A DNA stretch of 64,000 nt from Phyllobacterium zundukense (GTDB lineage Bacteria; Pseudomonadota; Alphaproteobacteria; Rhizobiales; Rhizobiaceae): contig NZ_CP104973.1 in NCBI RefSeq assembly GCF_025452195.1, forward strand, positions 992,001-1,056,000, in the 5' to 3' direction. Positions 9,294 through 30,788 of this stretch are shown one piece after another (the first letter of the stretch is position 1; each line of letters starts with the position of its first letter). The notes under the pieces were generated by a model. It did not search any database. It saw nothing but the letters and a program-made list of their open reading frames with translations, and was not told the DNA's origin. Both the position numbers and the translations under genes were made by a program.

Positions 9294-9641
9294 ATGAGCT
9301 CAGAGTCCCTCTATATCCACGTCACCGATCAGCACGGCAAGCGCCATACGCTGGAAGCCCTCGAAGGCTTTCGCGTCATGGAAGTCATCCGCGATTGGGG
9401 ACTAGACATCAAGGCGGAATGCGGCGGCGCCTGCGCCTGCGGCACGTGCCATGTCTATGTCGATCAGGATTGGTCGGAAAAGCTCTTTGCACCGCTTGAT
9501 GAGGAAGTCGACCAGCTCGACGTGACCTTTCACGTCGAGGACAATTCTCGTCTTTCCTGCCAGCTGATCATGACCGAAGAATTGAACGGTCTCGAAATCA
9601 CCCTGGCTCCGGACACCCAGCGGGAGAGCGTCGCAGCCTAG
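9294..9641 (+). CDS. 2Fe-2S ferredoxin
   Basis: 115 residues. The adrenodoxin/plant-type cluster ligands are visible in ECGGACACGTCHVY with the fourth cysteine in LSCQL. It lies nine bases after the ferredoxin reductase and is the last gene of the sulfur run, so it is the likely electron donor to CysI. Its TAG stop is the first three bases of the long palindromic repeat that follows. Confidence 0.92.
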   Translation: MSSESLYIHVTDQHGKRHTLEALEGFRVMEVIRDWGLDIKAECGGACACGTCHVYVDQDWSEKLFAPLDEEVDQLDVTFHVEDNSRLSCQLIMTEELNGLEITLAPDTQRESVAA

Positions 9642-9911
9642 AGCAAGTTTTGTTTATTCAGAGCCAGTTCTGTTTCTCGGATGGCGAGACAATCCACGCG
9701 GAAGGTGGCGAGGTCGATGTGGTTCATCGGACGAAGCCGCCTGACAAAGTGGTTGTCCGCCAGCCGGAAACCCAAAGGGCCGGGTGAATTTTGCCCAATT
9801 TCTTCGAGCTTCGGCTTCGTCCGATGGATAAACATCGGCCTCGCCAAATCCCTTGATCTTGAACCAAATTCCTTCCGGCAGAACGACTCTGAATAGACAA
9901 AATTTGCTCTA
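9639..9911. repeat. Long palindromic intergenic repeat, family A, copy 1
   Basis: About 273 bp with terminal inverted repeats TAGAGCAAGTTTTG at the left and CAAAATTTGCTCTA at the right. Internally it has nested palindromes such as CATCGGACGAAGCCGCC mirrored by CGAAGC...CGTCCGATG. A near-identical copy is at 58477-58748 and a half-size relative at 38711-38874. The left end supplies the ferredoxin stop codon and the right end that of the L,D-transpeptidase. No transposase is visible; it behaves like a MITE/RIME-type element. Confidence 0.85.
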
Positions 9912-10475
9912 GATTACGACGACTCTGGCACCTACCGGCACTCGCGCATACAGATCCATGACGTGTTCGTTGACCATGCGGATGCAGCCATTCGATACGG
10001 CGCGTCCTATCGTCCACGGCTCCGTCGTTCCGTGGATGCGATAATGCGTGTCGCGTCCATTGCGATAAAGATAGAGCGCGCGGGCGCCCAGCGGATTGCG
10101 GGGACCACCCGCGACACCACCGGCATAGCGCGCATATTTTTCCGGTTGGCGTCTGATCATACCGTTCGTCGGGATCCAGCGCGGCCATTTCGCCTTGCGG
10201 CCGACTTTCGCGACGCCATGGAAGACCCGGCCAGCCCGTCCGACCCCAACGCCATAACGCCGTGCGGTGAAACTGTCTTCGATCAGGTAAAGGAACCGGC
10301 CACGAGGGTCGATCACCACTGTGCCCGGCGCGTAGGATGAATCGTACGATACATATTGTGGGCGGAATTCCGGATTGATGACGAAGATTTTCTTCTTCTT
10401 TGGCGCCGCCAACGCAGCCTGCGGCGCCAGCGCCGCTGCAAGTATACCGGTAAGAACATCGCGACGTGTCAGCAT
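9909..10475 (-). CDS. L,D-transpeptidase (YkuD/ErfK family)
   Basis: 188 residues from the ATG at 10475; an upstream in-frame ATG would add 13 residues. The N-terminus MLTRRDVLTGILAAALAP is a Tat-like signal peptide ending at ALAA. The catalytic motif HGTTEPWTIGRAVSNGCIRM contains the histidine and the SxGCIRM cysteine. It would form 3-3 peptidoglycan cross-links or attach proteins to the wall in the periplasm. Its TAG stop is the right end of repeat family A. Confidence 0.92.
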   Translation of the reverse strand: MLTRRDVLTGILAAALAPQAALAAPKKKKIFVINPEFRPQYVSYDSSYAPGTVVIDPRGRFLYLIEDSFTARRYGVGVGRAGRVFHGVAKVGRKAKWPRWIPTNGMIRRQPEKYARYAGGVAGGPRNPLGARALYLYRNGRDTHYRIHGTTEPWTIGRAVSNGCIRMVNEHVMDLYARVPVGARVVVI

Positions 10476-22204: not shown

Positions 22205-22499
22205 CGTTTTTCATGCCTAAATAGAATTGTCTCGCCGGAGATGATTCGTTCGGGGCTAGCGAAGCCAATTGAAACGCCAGTTTCGGTTGCCAACAAGCCT
22301 TGGAGCGAATGACGTCGTTCGCGCCAATTCCGCCTCTGCGCCGCCATACGAGCCTTTGCAAAAAAATACGTCAACCTCGTATTTACTTCTATGTTTCTGT
22401 ATGTTCTCATTAACATGAGACGTTTACTTATATTTCTGTCTCAGACGCCGCCCTTTTATAACTATACTTTAGTATTATTGTGATTTTTACCAAGGAGAT
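22202..22499. promoter_or_regulatory. Region upstream of the lasso operon: partial repeat, palindromes and a candidate promoter
   Basis: The first part carries CATGCCTAAATAG, shared with repeats at 38717 and in inverted form at 44613. A hairpin sequence GCGAATGACGTCGTTCGC lies at 22305-22322. The DNA then becomes A+T-rich. A perfect inverted repeat TCTCAT-TAAC-ATGAGA is at 22405-22420, and TATACT at 22463-22468 is a plausible -10 box. The -35 box is weak, so the promoter call is tentative. Confidence 0.4.
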
Positions 22500-22502
22500 A
22501 TG

Positions 22503-22721
22503 ATGTTGGCGAGATTTAAGCGCGTGACTTTTGAAATGAGCAACGTTTCTGGCATTGTTATTACGAAATTGACCGAGAGTGCCACCAGACTCACTTTGGG
22601 TGATAAAGGTCCAGTCCCAGAATATTTCCCTGATCCTTTTTTGGATGATGACGGGCCCTGCAAGTCCAGGCCCGGGGTGCCCTCCCGTTGCAAAGGACCC
22701 CCTGTTACTTTTTACGGGTAA
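22503..22721 (+). CDS. Lasso peptide precursor, microcin J25-like with enlarged loop (McjA-type)
   Basis: Two ATGs (22500, 22503) follow AAGGAG at 22492-22497; the second has better spacing, giving 72 residues. The leader ends SATRLTL, with the conserved threonine at -2, and resembles the McjA leader end SASQLTK. The predicted 40-residue core starts GDKGPVPEYF (J25: GGAGHVPEYF) and ends PPVTFYG (J25: TPISFYG). Gly1 and Glu8 would form the eight-residue macrolactam ring. Between Phe10 and the C-terminal segment lies a long insert rich in Asp and Pro with Cys21 and Cys31 in PCKSRPGVPSRCKGP. By homology it would be exported and may inhibit RNA polymerase. The downstream B, C and D genes confirm the call. 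Confidence 0.9.
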   Translation: MLARFKRVTFEMSNVSGIVITKLTESATRLTLGDKGPVPEYFPDPFLDDDGPCKSRPGVPSRCKGPPVTFYG

Positions 22722-22732
22722 ATATCAATTGT

Positions 22733-22757
22733 GAGGACCGATTATTAATCGGTCCTC
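22733..22757 (+). terminator. Hairpin between lasso precursor and maturation genes
   Basis: GAGGACCGAT and ATCGGTCCTC form a perfect ten-base stem with a five-base loop, followed by TTCCTCC but no strong T-run. It lies 12 bases after the precursor stop. It probably acts as an attenuator or mRNA-stabilising element that keeps precursor message above that of the enzymes (inference). Confidence 0.65.
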
Positions 22758-22790
22758 TTCCTCCAAACAACAATTTTGTGCTCTACAATA

Positions 22791-23469
22791 ATGTATTATA
22801 TCCTCCGAAATAACATAAAAGCAGCGCATTACTCAGATGATTTGATACTTCTGAACACATCACGAAATCGTTTTACGGTGCTCCACGATGTTGACCGTAC
22901 GCGAGTAAATAAAGTTTTTTCTGAGCCATTTCTACAGGAGAGTTCCGATACTCTCCGGGCGTTGTTGTCATTAGACGTACTCGATAAAAGCTCTGCCCCC
23001 CGAAACTAATACCGGCTGTTGAACATCAAGGATATTATGATCACAGATGGATTACACCAGTCCATGTTGCTGAAAATTTTAAGCGAGCGGACTGTGCCAA
23101 AGCACTGGCTGCCCTTTGGCGGAGCGGGCTGATAGTCAGGCTGGCAGGATATCGAGGAATTCTAAAAAGACTTGGTGGAACTGTCGCAACAAACAGCATT
23201 TGCGGCGACCTCGATCGCGAACGTGATAAACTTTCTAGAATCATATCTGCCCTAAACAAAACTTTTATATTCGATTTCAGTGGCAACAAATGCCTGACAT
23301 ATGCACTAGCACTTGTGCTCCTTGCGCGATCCAAAAGATAGCTCTGAAGCTCATCATCGGCGCCAAGACAAGACCATTCTGTGCGCATGCCTGGGTTGAG
23401 CATGATGGAACAGTGATCAATGATGATCCCGCACTCCGCAACAAACTCGCAGTCCTGTTGGAGTGTTGA
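22791..23469 (+). pseudogene. Lasso leader peptidase B (McjB-type, RRE + transglutaminase-like protease), two frameshifts
   Basis: The ATG at 22791 opens a PqqD-like leader-binding (RRE) domain, MYYILRNNIKAAHYSDDLIL, which stops at 23009. The protease part continues in another frame from about 23001 (VEHQGYYDHRWITPVH) to KCLTYALALVLLARSK, then shifts again to IALKLIIGAKTRPFCAHAW...INDDP, ending at 23469. The pattern follows McjB closely, including its CLTY cysteine and HAW/HSW histidine motif. Adding one base at C6 (22996-23001) and one at A4 (23333-23336) restores a single protein of about 226 residues. It overlaps gene C (TGATG). Confidence 0.85.
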
Positions 23470-25180
23470 TGTTTATTCTACATCAGGACAAAATCTCAAC
23501 AGAAAATGCCACAAGAGTAGCTATCTTCGCAGCTAAACGCGGGATGTCCAAACATGTCTTGTCAGGATGTACTATATATTGCGGCGATTTATTCTTGATC
23601 GCGACCATCGAAAAAAACATGGTTTCTATTTTGGAATGGCATTCAGCGGCAGTACCAAGATAAATCCGTATGATCATCACTGTTTAGTTCACCTGGCGAA
23701 GACGCTGGAATCTGCAGTGGGATTTTTTCTGTGTATCGTAGTAGGCGACAAGGGCGTGACCGTTTTTTCAAGCTTGTATCGCGGCAAGGATTGCTTCTTT
23801 AGCGATGGCAGTGATGGATTCATTCTCGCTACGGACCCTGCTTTCTTGCAGTCCCTGTCTAATAATACAGCGGCACCTTTAAACGTCGAGTACTGCACGA
23901 ATTTCATTCTAAACGACCACACCTATAATGGAGATACCGCATTCGCGAATGTTAGCCAGATAATGCTTGGGGAAATTCTTACTTTTCACCGGAATGGTCT
24001 TATTGATCGAAATGGAATCACAGCAGCGATACCTGATTGCAGTGACATCATTGATATCCATAAGCACAACATGCAGACCTTCGTTCCGCTTTTTAAGAGT
24101 GTCTCTCTGATGTTCTCGGGTGGCCTCGACTCAAGCACATTGTTTTTTGTCCTTGATGGATTGGGCTTTGATTTCTCGTGTCTGCATACGACGACGACCG
24201 AAGATCCGAATTCGACTGAGATCGATGAGGCGAGGTCGGTAGCGGCTTCTCGCGGGCGAGATATTGTGGAGTTGAGAGCGAAGGTGCCGTCCATGGAGAA
24301 AAAGCGTTTTACCCTATGTACGCTTGATACCGTCACTTCGCCATATGATGTTGATATAATGGAATTGTTAGATGGTTCCGAAAAACCTGACAATCACGAC
24401 CCAAAAGTGAACGCAACCCATTCGCACGACTTATTACAATTGAACGGACATGGCGGAGAACATTTGTTTCTGCAGAACCCAAGTAGGGCGATTGGATATG
24501 ATGCGTTTTATTATGGCGACGTCGTAAACGCAGTGAAGGAAATAGTGAAGTTCTGCACTCTGAAAAAAGAGTTTGTATTTCCGGTGATCCTTACAACTAT
24601 TGCGAATCTCTTGAGAATCGGACATCCGCGTCGAAGCTGCGACCAACATCGTTCAGAATGGTGTCAGGCCAGTAGCACCGTCCCCAGTCGCCGACACCAT
24701 TTGCTGATGGGCGCTGATCCGCGAAGCGCAAAATATCAGCATTTGCTTGGCATCCTGTCGGTCCTCCATTCTTGTCCCCGCATCGATTCACTCGAAAATA
24801 TATCTTTGAGCCCATTCGTGCTTCAGAACATGGTGAGTTACGTAATCAATCTACCCGTAAGCAAATTATACTCCGATACATTTGACCGTTTGCCCATCAG
24901 GAAAGCACTATATGAATATAGCCGCAACGAAGTGGCGTGGCGAAGAACAAAGCGATCATCTTCTGGCTTCCTGTTTAATGTACTTAGAAGAAACCATGAC
25001 AATTTTAACAAAGCCCTTTGTGAGGGAACTGTTGCCAGAACGTTGGGCATTTATGTATCCAAACTGAATTCATGCATTTCATATAATGCTCACATTGCGT
25101 TGACAGATGACTTGCCGGCGCTTCTCAGAATGTATCAGTTAGAGACATTCATCCGAAAACCACTGTATCGATTTAACTAG
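23469..25180 (+). pseudogene. Lasso cyclase C (McjC-type asparagine synthetase-like), one frameshift
   Basis: ATG 23469 overlaps the B stop. The first frame runs to about 23617, then an A7 tract (23611-23617) needs one more A to join the long frame ending at 25180; restored length is about 570 residues (McjC 513). The ATP pyrophosphatase motif SLMFSGGLDSSTLFF, NGHGGEHLFLQNPS and FDRLPIRK...WRRTKRSSSGFLF match McjC closely. It would adenylate the Glu8 side chain and close the ring onto Gly1. Translation from an internal start might yield the synthetase domain alone, but the N-terminal amidotransferase-like part would be lost. Confidence 0.87.
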
Positions 25181-25240
25181 TTTGATTTGGAGAATTGCTC
25201 GCCACATCCACAGATGTGGGGCAGAGACGGGATAATATTG

Positions 25241-26992
25241 ATGACGAATTGGTCAAGCCTGTGGATGTTTGTGCTTTATGATCTGGAACGTACCACCAAG
25301 TACAGGTGCGCTTCGATAATGGCCATCACCATAGGCACATCGATAATATTTGGAATTGCGCCATTCGCCCTTTCCAAGATTACAGATTTGGTTGCCAGTG
25401 GCAATCTCGCCGCAGGTATCTCCTCAAACACGATATTCTTATGGGCTTCGATCTATCTCGTCTGTCTCGCGGTCGGCAGATTCTCATCGACTTTGTCGTT
25501 GTATTTTCAAAGCATGCTCCGGCTCGACGTTGTTAACGTTTTGTCGAAGATCTATTTTCGCTACATTATTGGACAAAAGGCGGACTTTTTCACAATTAAG
25601 AATTCCGGCGATCTTTCTCAAGAACTAAACCAAGCAAACAATGACTTTTACGTAATTATCCGAAGTTTTTCGGGGAGCGTGGTATCACCCATTATTCAAA
25701 TCGCTTCATCCTTCCTCGTTCTGTTGTATACCGAAAATTACCCCGTAGTGGTGTATTTCATTATATATATACTCGCGTTCTCTATAAATAACGCATACTT
25801 CACAAAAAAATTATATGATAAGAAGATTAAATTGATGGACGCTGGGCGGCAATCGCACTCGGTGTTAGTCGATTCTATAGCCAACATTTCTGTTGCGAAA
25901 CAGTATGGTTCTTTTGATTTTTTCTTCGCACGTTATACCGGCGTGTTGGATCAAGACCGCGCCACACAGTCCGAATATTGGCGTACCACTATACTTATGC
26001 TTTTATTGAATACGACGCTCTTTACAACTCTCTACGTTGTCAGCTTTTTGCAAGTTGTTTATGGCGTGATCGCTGGTAGTGTGACCATTGGCGAGTTTGT
26101 TATGGTTGCGTCGTATATTGTGATTTTAGCTAGCCCCATTGAAAACTTGGGCAGTATGTTTACAGAAGTTAACCAGTCGGTAATGACATTTGGAGCTTTT
26201 CTGTCCCGCATTCGTGACCAAGTAACACGCGCTCCCAAAGCAATTTCGCCAATATTTTCCAACAACAAGATTGCACTAAAGGTCACGCAGCTTTCTTTTT
26301 CCTATATGCAATCTTCGCACAATGCATTGGAAGATGTTTCGTTTGAAATCCGTTCGGGCAATAGCATTATATGGACGGGCGAAAGTGGTTCCGGAAAAAG
26401 TACGCTCGTCAAGATTTTAACAGGCCAATACGAACCGTCGTCGGGACAAATTCAAGTATTTGGAGTTAATCTGGAGGACATTGATCCGGCGACTCTTAAT
26501 GGAACCGTGGGAGTGGTTTCGCAAGATGTTATGATCTTCAAGGACACCCTGCGTTTCAATCTATTGATGGCCAAACCTGACGCGGACGATAACCAGTTAG
26601 TGGAGGCACTGATAAATGCAGGCCTAGGAGAATTCTTTGATCAATTACCTGAAAAGTTGGACACACTCTTAGGCGACCGTGGAACAAAACTTTCAGGTGG
26701 ACAAAGGCAAAGGATTTCCTTTGCTCGTTTATTTCTCACCAGCCCCTCTATTGTGATCGTTGACGAGGGTACATCCTCCTTGGATGTGGTGACCGAACGA
26801 AAAGTACTGGAAAAGCTGGCTGATTATTTCAAAACAAGAACAGTCATTACCATTAGCCATCGAGCTAGTGCCATGGTCAATAGTGACGCGATTTTCGTAT
26901 TTAACAGGGGACGCCTACAAGATCGAGGTACTCGCTCTGAACTTAAGGGAAGAAACCCATATTTCGCGCAACTTTTGGAACTATCATTATAG
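25241..26992 (+). CDS. Lasso peptide exporter/immunity ABC transporter D (McjD-type)
   Basis: 583 residues from ATG 25241 (McjD is 580); ATG 25214 is an alternative. The N-terminal part has six membrane helices, with ELNQANNDFYVIIRS and EFVMVASYIVILASPIENLGS very close to McjD. The nucleotide-binding domain has WTGESGSGKSTLVKI (Walker A), [15 protein letters not shown] (signature) and IVIVDEGTSS (Walker B; Gly replaces the usual Ala). It would export the mature peptide and give self-immunity. The gene is intact, unlike B and C. Confidence 0.93.
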   Translation: MTNWSSLWMFVLYDLERTTKYRCASIMAITIGTSIIFGIAPFALSKITDLVASGNLAAGISSNTIFLWASIYLVCLAVGRFSSTLSLYFQSMLRLDVVNVLSKIYFRYIIGQKADFFTIKNSGDLSQELNQANNDFYVIIRSFSGSVVSPIIQIASSFLVLLYTENYPVVVYFIIYILAFSINNAYFTKKLYDKKIKLMDAGRQSHSVLVDSIANISVAKQYGSFDFFFARYTGVLDQDRATQSEYWRTTILMLLLNTTLFTTLYVVSFLQVVYGVIAGSVTIGEFVMVASYIVILASPIENLGSMFTEVNQSVMTFGAFLSRIRDQVTRAPKAISPIFSNNKIALKVTQLSFSYMQSSHNALEDVSFEIRSGNSIIWTGESGSGKSTLVKILTGQYEPSSGQIQVFGVNLEDIDPATLNGTVGVVSQDVMIFKDTLRFNLLMAKPDADDNQLVEALINAGLGEFFDQLPEKLDTLLGDRGTKLSGGQRQRISFARLFLTSPSIVIVDEGTSSLDVVTERKVLEKLADYFKTRTVITISHRASAMVNSDAIFVFNRGRLQDRGTRSELKGRNPYFAQLLELSL

Positions 26993-27082
26993 ATGACCCT
27001 AAGTCAGCGTAGGCACAAGAGCAACACTCGTCCAATCCCTGCGAAACCGCGGCCAAAACCGATAGGCAAGCCGGGTCAATAA
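26993..27082 (+). CDS. Possible cationic proline-rich 29-residue peptide after the exporter gene
   Basis: The ATG follows the exporter stop with no gap (TAGATG). The 29-residue product starts MTLSQRRHKSNTRP and ends IGKPGQ. It has six prolines, four arginines, four lysines and no acidic residues, a composition like proline-rich antimicrobial peptides. The ribosome-binding site is weak (GGAA about 13 bases upstream), so translation would rely on coupling. It could be a chance open frame. Confidence 0.3.
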   Translation: MTLSQRRHKSNTRPIPAKPRPKPIGKPGQ

Positions 27083-27095
27083 CGCTATAGGGACG

Positions 27096-27240
27096 TAGAG
27101 CCCGTTTGGAAAGTCGCTGCGGCGAGACATATGGCGCGGTTTTCGAGAACCGGAGCGGAGCGTATATTGAGTACGTGAGCACCGGAAGCACAGAAAATCG
27201 CATCAGATGACCGCCGCAGTAGAGTTTCGAAACGGGCTCT
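27096..27240. repeat. Palindromic repeat family B, complete copy
   Basis: 145 bp with ends TAGAGCCCGTTT and AAACGGGCTCT. The core CGGTTTTCGAGAACCGGAGC and GAGCACCGGAAGCACAGAAA matches the copy at 17796-17941. It marks the return to GC-rich chromosomal DNA right of the lasso operon. Together with the 29-codon frame it accounts for nearly all of the gap before the next ABC gene. Confidence 0.85.
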
Positions 27241-30703: not shown

Positions 30704-30788
30704 GCCCAGATGGCGGAATTGGTAGACGCGCACGGTTCAGGTCCGTGTGCCGCAAGGCGTGGAGGTTCGAGTCCTCTTCTGGGCACCA
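30704..30788 (+). tRNA. tRNA-Leu (anticodon CAG)
   Basis: 85 bases with encoded CCA. The acceptor stem GCCCAGA pairs with TCTGGGC. The D-arm GCGGAATTGGTAGACGC is typical of leucine tRNA, and the anticodon stem CACGG/CCGTG encloses TTCAGGT, giving anticodon CAG. A long variable arm and the T-loop GGTTCGAGTCC follow. Confidence 0.97.

What the first reader, a model, noticed from the sequence alone, without database searches (positions are those of the whole stretch)
22503..22721. Microcin J25-type lasso precursor with an exceptionally long, cysteine-containing loop
The predicted core keeps both ends of microcin J25: ring segment G..G.VPEYF with Glu8 and the C-terminal FYG. The loop between them is expanded from about 8 to about 27 residues and gains Cys21 and Cys31. 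The resulting 40-residue peptide would be longer than the J25-like lasso peptides I know (ubonodin has 28 residues). A disulfide closing the symmetrical CKSRPGVPSRCK segment would make a bicyclic lasso. In J25 the loop governs receptor recognition, so a changed uptake receptor is plausible while the RNA polymerase-binding residues are kept.
Basis: partly seen in the sequence, partly recalled or inferred. Interest (0 to 1): 0.95.

Follow-up and report, generated by a model that had tools for sequence, protein, structure and literature searches.

The report
Record-length J25-type lasso precursor, broken cluster
A bacterium that is likely a Phyllobacterium carries, on a roughly 4.8 kb stretch of DNA absent from 19 other genomes of its genus, an intact gene for a microcin J25-type peptide whose predicted 40-residue core is longer than in any relative found here, but the two genes that would fold it into its knot are broken as sequenced, so it probably makes no finished peptide today.

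Summary
Window 22500/22503-22721 encodes a J25-family lasso precursor (NF033471, 30.4 bits, cut-off 23) whose predicted 40-residue core keeps the VPEYF ring end and FYG tail, with Cys21 and Cys31 in the loop. Of 28 proteins from a profile search, 27 show the core motif; the next longest core has 28 residues and no other counted core has a cysteine. Reviews name 20 residues (achromonodin-1) as the largest loop; counted alike, this would be 30.

A and D (closest solved structure McjD) are intact. The low-GC insert is absent from 19 other genomes of the genus. Frame breaks are rare elsewhere (55 of 58 orthologues full-length, 1 split), so real decay is more likely than assembly error, but the control is imperfect and resequencing must decide. 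The cysteine-bearing part of the loop is GC-rich and may be an in-frame insert. Novel as a precursor; production by this strain is doubtful.

The parts
22205..27010 (+). Inserted lasso island (approximate ends) between the glucokinase gene and a chromosomal ABC exporter gene
   Evidence: GC 0.40-0.46 in 500-base windows from 22500 to 26999 against 0.50-0.65 on either side; in relatives L033 and L034 the blocks matching 22203 and 27239 lie 93 bp apart
22492..22497 (+). Shine-Dalgarno-like AAGGAG upstream of gene A
   Evidence: read from the sequence
22503..22721 (+). Gene A: J25-type lasso precursor, 72 aa (73 aa from the ATG at 22500)
   Evidence: NF033471 30.4 bits over cut-off 23
22599..22718 (+). 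Predicted 40-residue core (predicted ring 1-8, loop 9-38, tail 39-40)
   Evidence: alignment with 8 relatives: Thr -2, Gly1, Gly4, Glu8 and the penultimate Tyr invariant; codons
22653..22703 (+). GC-rich segment (73%) coding residues 19-35 with both cysteines; possible in-frame insert
   Evidence: GC3 13 of 17 codons against 6 of 23 in the rest of the core, boundaries chosen after looking; no match in plasmids or phages; in the own genome only itself and four short matches of 14-23 nt
22791..23009 (+). Gene B, piece 1: N-terminal (likely leader-recognition) part
   Evidence: weak tblastn to B of L002 and L004, 27-35% identity over 33-40 residues; frame ends at 23009
22988..23341 (+). Gene B, piece 2: first part of the transglutaminase-like protease
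   Evidence: 39% identity to L002 B over 23024-23329; open frame 22988-23338; NF033537 23 bits, below its cut-off of 33
23338..23469 (+). Gene B, piece 3: end of the protease
   Evidence: 67.5% identity to L002 B over 23347-23466; NF033537 40.6 bits over cut-off 33
23469..23663 (+). Gene C, likely N-terminal piece; its ATG overlaps the stop of B
   Evidence: frame ends at 23663; L003 has the same one-base B-stop/C-start overlap, L002 and L004 overlap by four. Assigned by position, not by a significant match
23567..25180 (+). Gene C, body (Asn-synthase-like lasso cyclase) in another frame
   Evidence: PF00733; 25-30% identity to ten relatives of 548-575 aa, invariant FSGGLDSS (P0013, 428 aa, was not aligned)
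25187..26992 (+). Gene D: McjD-type ABC exporter, intact
   Evidence: best solved structure McjD 4pl0, E 5.4e-104, next 1.1e-82; single-frame match to residues 1-581 of 585 of L002 D, 37%; Walker A and LSGGQ present

Best explanation
This is a likely acquired microcin J25-type lasso cluster (A-B-C-D) whose intact precursor encodes a predicted 40-residue core with a predicted 30-residue, two-cysteine loop, and whose processing genes B and C are frame-broken as sequenced, so the strain is likely a non-producer that still carries the exporter. Shown: precursor, gene order, empty site in relatives, frame breaks, intact D. Inferred: before the breaks, B would have removed the 32- or 33-residue leader after Thr-Leu, C would have joined Gly1 to Glu8 around the tail with Phe38/Tyr39 as plugs, D would have exported it, and a Cys21-Cys31 disulfide would have formed outside the cytoplasm; the retained ring and FYG end would have inhibited RNA polymerase in a susceptible neighbour while the loop set which receptor lets it in. 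Retained D may still protect the strain from related peptides (inferred, untested).
For: J25-family model over cut-off; invariant Thr -2/Gly1/Gly4/Glu8 with eight relatives; longest core of 27. B of L002 and L004 maps to three frames of the window, B of L003 to two of them; the cyclase body matches from about residue 55 of L003 C, while its frame opens only at 23537 and the ATG overlapping the stop of B is in another frame. B and C are single frames in L002-L004 and annotated as genes in L038 and L040-L043 (L040 and L043 are both microcin J25). No other lasso B over the cut-off and no second C in the genome (one further B-like stretch at 13.2 bits, below cut-off). Frame breaks are rare elsewhere: 71 of 78 relatives' ORFs match full-length in one frame near the island and 55 of 58 in 200 kb, with one split and two partial. 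No matching DNA or C in 19 of 19 other genomes of the genus.
Against: Two of the three break intervals contain a homopolymer run of six or more, where sequencing errors cluster, and the flanking genes used as control have few such runs (3 in 20.5 kb against 10 in 4.5 kb of the island), so the control is imperfect. The DNA-level gap count of the flanks was noisy: dozens of gaps not divisible by three, mostly compensating pairs a few bases apart, a few unpaired and not followed up. The pieces stay recognisable (up to 67% identity), so any decay is recent. The N-terminal C piece is assigned by position only. No second isolate is available.
Confidence: 0.6

Rival explanations
1. The frame breaks are assembly errors; the cluster is live and makes a 40-residue lasso peptide with a loop disulfide.
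For: Two of three break intervals hold homopolymer runs of six or more; the pieces keep recognisable B and C sequence; A and D are intact.
Against: 1 of 58 orthologous genes was split in 200 kb of the same chromosome; the genome is rated 99.9% complete; the second B break interval holds no run of six or more.
Confidence: 0.22
2. The long loop is itself decay: a GC-rich segment landed in frame in the precursor after the pathway was dead, so no 40-residue lasso was ever made; the core without residues 19-35 would have had 23 residues, an ordinary J25-type length.
For: Residues 19-35 have GC 73% and GC3 13 of 17 against 6 of 23 in the rest of the core; B and C are broken; a review passage says no increase of loop size by engineering has been reported (PMC13352647).
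Against: The segment keeps frame and has no stop; no source copy was found in the genome, plasmids or phages; boundaries were chosen after looking; Pro/Gly/Arg codons are GC-rich anyway.
Confidence: 0.15
3. B and C are expressed despite the breaks by slippage during transcription or translation.
For: Homopolymer runs lie in two of three break intervals.
Against: Three separate slips would be needed, one without a long run; the compared clusters (L002-L004, L038, L040-L043) have single-frame or annotated B and C.
Confidence: 0.03

Closest known systems
Microcin J25 (mcjABCD)
   Same: VPEYF ring end, FYG tail, Thr at -2, A/B/C/D gene set; D's closest solved structure is McjD
   Different: Core 40 against 21 residues; two cysteines; one-strand A-B-C-D order (mcjA is on the other strand in L040); B and C broken
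Achromonodin-1 and the Achromobacter sp. RTa cluster
   Same: RTa has the closest C protein by score apart from the window's own (P0003, 32%); 8-residue ring; loop starts with a similar Pro/Asp stretch (PDP here and in RTa, IDP in achromonodin-1)
   Different: Achromonodin-1 has 30 residues with a 20-residue loop (PMC13352647, PMC12016500), RTa core 27, no cysteine; B and C are single frames in RTa
Ubonodin
   Same: 8-residue ring, EYF, long loop, C-terminal YG (sequence in PMC12427821)
   Different: 28 residues, no cysteine
Pandonodin and class IV lasso peptides
   Same: Long, one disulfide in the part after the ring
   Different: 33 residues with the disulfide in the threaded tail (PMC13352647, PMC9266682); here both Cys would lie in the loop, which none of classes I-IV as described there covers

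Membership tests
J25-type lasso precursor (NF033471) | Score over the curated cut-off | tested here: met
   30.4 bits against 23; 26.8 in the genome search
J25-type lasso precursor (NF033471) | Thr -2, Gly1, Glu8 and penultimate Tyr | tested here: met
   invariant with eight relatives
J25-type lasso precursor (NF033471) | Core length within the range of known members (18-28 found here; 30 in print); a range, not a definition | tested here: not met
   40 residues
Functional lasso peptide cluster | Intact B (leader protease) | tested here: not met
   three frames
Functional lasso peptide cluster | Intact C (cyclase) | tested here: not met
   body open, N-terminal part in another frame
Functional lasso peptide cluster | Exporter D | tested here: met
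Functional lasso peptide cluster | Threaded, dehydrated product | not testable with these tools
   needs mass spectrometry or NMR
RNA polymerase-inhibiting lasso peptides | Inhibition of transcription | not testable with these tools
   only ring and tail residues are shared
Class IV (tail-tail disulfide) lasso peptides | One disulfide within the threaded tail | not testable with these tools
   Cys21 and Cys31 are predicted to lie in the loop, not the tail; bond untested

The most novel reading that the evidence does not exclude
The cluster is live (breaks are artefacts or bypassed) and makes a 40-residue lasso peptide with a 30-residue loop closed on itself by a disulfide: the longest loop of any lasso peptide and a new disulfide class (loop-loop), in which an inserted cysteine hairpin re-targets a J25-type RNA polymerase inhibitor to a new receptor.
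Probability: 0.18. Interest if true: 0.85.

Novelty: new variant of a known kind. Interest (0 to 1): 0.5.

Why it matters
If the 40-residue core can be threaded, it would show that J25-type cyclases accept loops far longer than the 20-residue record, and that a disulfide-closed insert can sit in the loop that faces the uptake receptor. If the cluster is dead, it is still the only J25-type precursor that the family model found in samples of its family and class (this genome alone: 1 of 394 and 1 of 385; the class is likely Alphaproteobacteria) and a caution: precursor-only mining would list it as a product of a strain that probably cannot make it.

Tried and rejected
Rejected or empty: (1) the precursor alone found only itself among proteins and one weak plasmid hit in Acinetobacter soli (E 0.4). 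(2) A second lasso B or C in the genome acting in trans: for B, the two local pieces and one stretch at 13.2 bits, below the cut-off; for C, own locus only. (3) The long loop as a hairpin or repeat element: fold z -0.69, only short matches of 14-23 nt elsewhere in the genome, no plasmid or phage match. (4) Solved structure of the core: no match. (5) Promoter and terminator scans did not clearly exceed shuffles (12 against mean 9.3, sd 3.0; 3 against 4.4, sd 2.2). (6) A 16S search for naming the organism found nothing. The Phyllobacterium label is inferred from the three best plasmid matches to 20 kb of another contig, each covering only 7-11% of it (of 100 matching records 5 are Phyllobacterium, 44 Sinorhizobium, 23 Rhizobium; 8 rows were shown, none Sinorhizobium). 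(7) Literature: the listings showed me no lasso peptide with a loop above 20 residues or a loop-loop disulfide, but these are titles and abstract starts, five of the nine lists were complete and four capped (30 of 66, 20 of 57, 15 of 34, 15 of 250), only open-licence PMC is held, and only passages of four papers were seen (PMC13352647, PMC9266682, PMC12427821, PMC12016500). The protein search scored only the 7996 candidates sharing most words.

Rows dropped: P0040 had no core motif and is not among the 27; P0039 (a 24-aa fragment) is counted; for P0038 the last of two motifs was counted, and one Cys lies between the two. In one search, 7 of 78 ORFs were not full-length: four partial, three matched in two frames; two of those three lie mostly over intervals that other relatives' ORFs cover in one frame, the third (9303-10188) only in part. 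In one search, 2 of 58 were partial and 1 split.

Full report
The precursor. Window 22500/22503-22721 (+) encodes a small protein (73 or 72 aa) with AAGGAG just upstream. It passes the curated J25-family model (NF033471) with 30.4 bits against a cut-off of 23. Aligned with eight precursors from Achromobacter, Cronobacter, E. coli (microcin J25), Klebsiella (klebsidin), Acinetobacter (two) and Cupriavidus (two), Thr at -2, Gly1, Gly4, Glu8 and the penultimate Tyr are invariant. The core is 40 residues with Cys21 and Cys31.

How unusual it is. A profile search with that alignment returned 28 proteins among 309 candidates; 27 have a recognisable core motif, several of them near-duplicates. The window's core has 40 residues; the next are 28 (two), then 27 (four); none of the other 26 counted cores has a cysteine (P0038 has one between its two motifs). 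The search sees only relatives that share short words with the query. In print, achromonodin-1 is named as the largest loop (20 of 30 residues) and pandonodin as the longest tail (33 residues in all) (PMC13352647, passages; PMC12016500, passages). Counting as for achromonodin-1 (8 + 20 + 2), this would be 8 + 30 + 2, if the plugs sit at Phe38/Tyr39 as in J25 (inferred). The disulfide classes I-IV described in PMC13352647 and PMC9266682 (passages) put disulfides at ring-loop and ring-tail, nowhere, ring-tail or tail-tail; class V (lariocidin B) is an isopeptide bond (PMC12427821, passages). A loop-loop bond would be new to that scheme, but it is untested.

The cluster. The order is A-B-C-D on one strand. 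D is intact and its best solved-structure match is McjD (352 bits; next 282). The closest cyclase by score among 12 proteins found (one of them the window's own) is from Achromobacter sp. RTa, whose locus L002 carries an A-B-C-D cluster.

The breaks. The B proteins of L002 and L004 match the window in three frames: an N-terminal part (weak), the first part of the protease, and its end; B of L003 matches in the last two. The open pieces overlap only within 22988-23009 and 23239-23341. C should start at the ATG overlapping the stop of B (23469), but that frame ends at 23663, while the cyclase body is open in another frame from 23537 to 25177. B and C are single frames in L002-L004 and annotated as genes in L038 and L040-L043. 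The genome holds no other lasso B over the cut-off and no second C.

Decay or artefact. In the 30 kb around the island, 71 of 78 relatives' ORFs match the window full-length in one frame; four are partial and three match in two frames. In another 200 kb, against one relative, 55 of 58 are full-length, two partial and one split. The DNA-level gap count was too noisy to add much. The island has more homopolymer runs (10 of six or more in 4.5 kb) than the flanking genes (3 in 20.5 kb), and two of three break intervals contain one, so sequencing error is not excluded. The middle break interval has no run of six or more. I favour real, recent decay.

Origin. GC falls from 0.50-0.65 to 0.40-0.46 over the cluster. 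Close relatives have the same flanks without the cluster; the matching blocks lie 93 bp apart. None of 19 other genomes of the genus has matching DNA or C. The J25-family model found only this genome in samples of 394 (family), 385 (class) and 398 (phylum) genomes, which overlap. Within the precursor, codons 19-35, with both cysteines, are GC-rich (73%; GC3 13 of 17 against 6 of 23 in the rest of the core; Fisher p 0.003, boundaries chosen after looking). Without them the core would have 23 residues. An in-frame insert is therefore a fair guess for how the loop grew, but no source was found.

How it would work. Inferred from the J25 pathway: leader removal by B, Gly1-Glu8 ring closure by C around the tail, export by D, disulfide formation outside the cytoplasm, uptake by a receptor and RNA polymerase inhibition in a target cell. 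None of these steps was tested here. As sequenced the strain probably stops before the first one.

Verdict. A real and record-length member of the J25 precursor family in a cluster that is probably dead. New variant of a known kind; interest moderate, rising sharply if resequencing shows B and C intact.

Noticed in passing
window 27097-27240: A 144 bp element with 19-nt inverted ends (89% complementary), absent from the empty sites of two relatives; looks like a small palindromic repeat element.
   Followed up: partly
window 30704-30788 and beyond: tRNA-Leu (CAG); synteny with the four relatives fetched ends at about 30.6-30.8 kb, so a further genomic island may start at this tRNA.
   Followed up: partly
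L041:1435-1608 (-): J25-type precursor with a 28-residue core on a Cronobacter dublinensis plasmid, on the strand opposite to its B, C and D genes as in microcin J25; not in the gene table shown, though NCBI names the protein (P0017).
   Followed up: partly
L039:1907-2068: J25-type precursor with an 18-residue core on a Cupriavidus necator plasmid record without gene annotation in the collection used; NCBI names the protein (P0016).
   Followed up: partly
P0038: An 84-aa protein with two J25-like ring motifs in a row (TQGGSGNMHE and TLGGKGNLVE), perhaps a two-core precursor.
   Followed up: no
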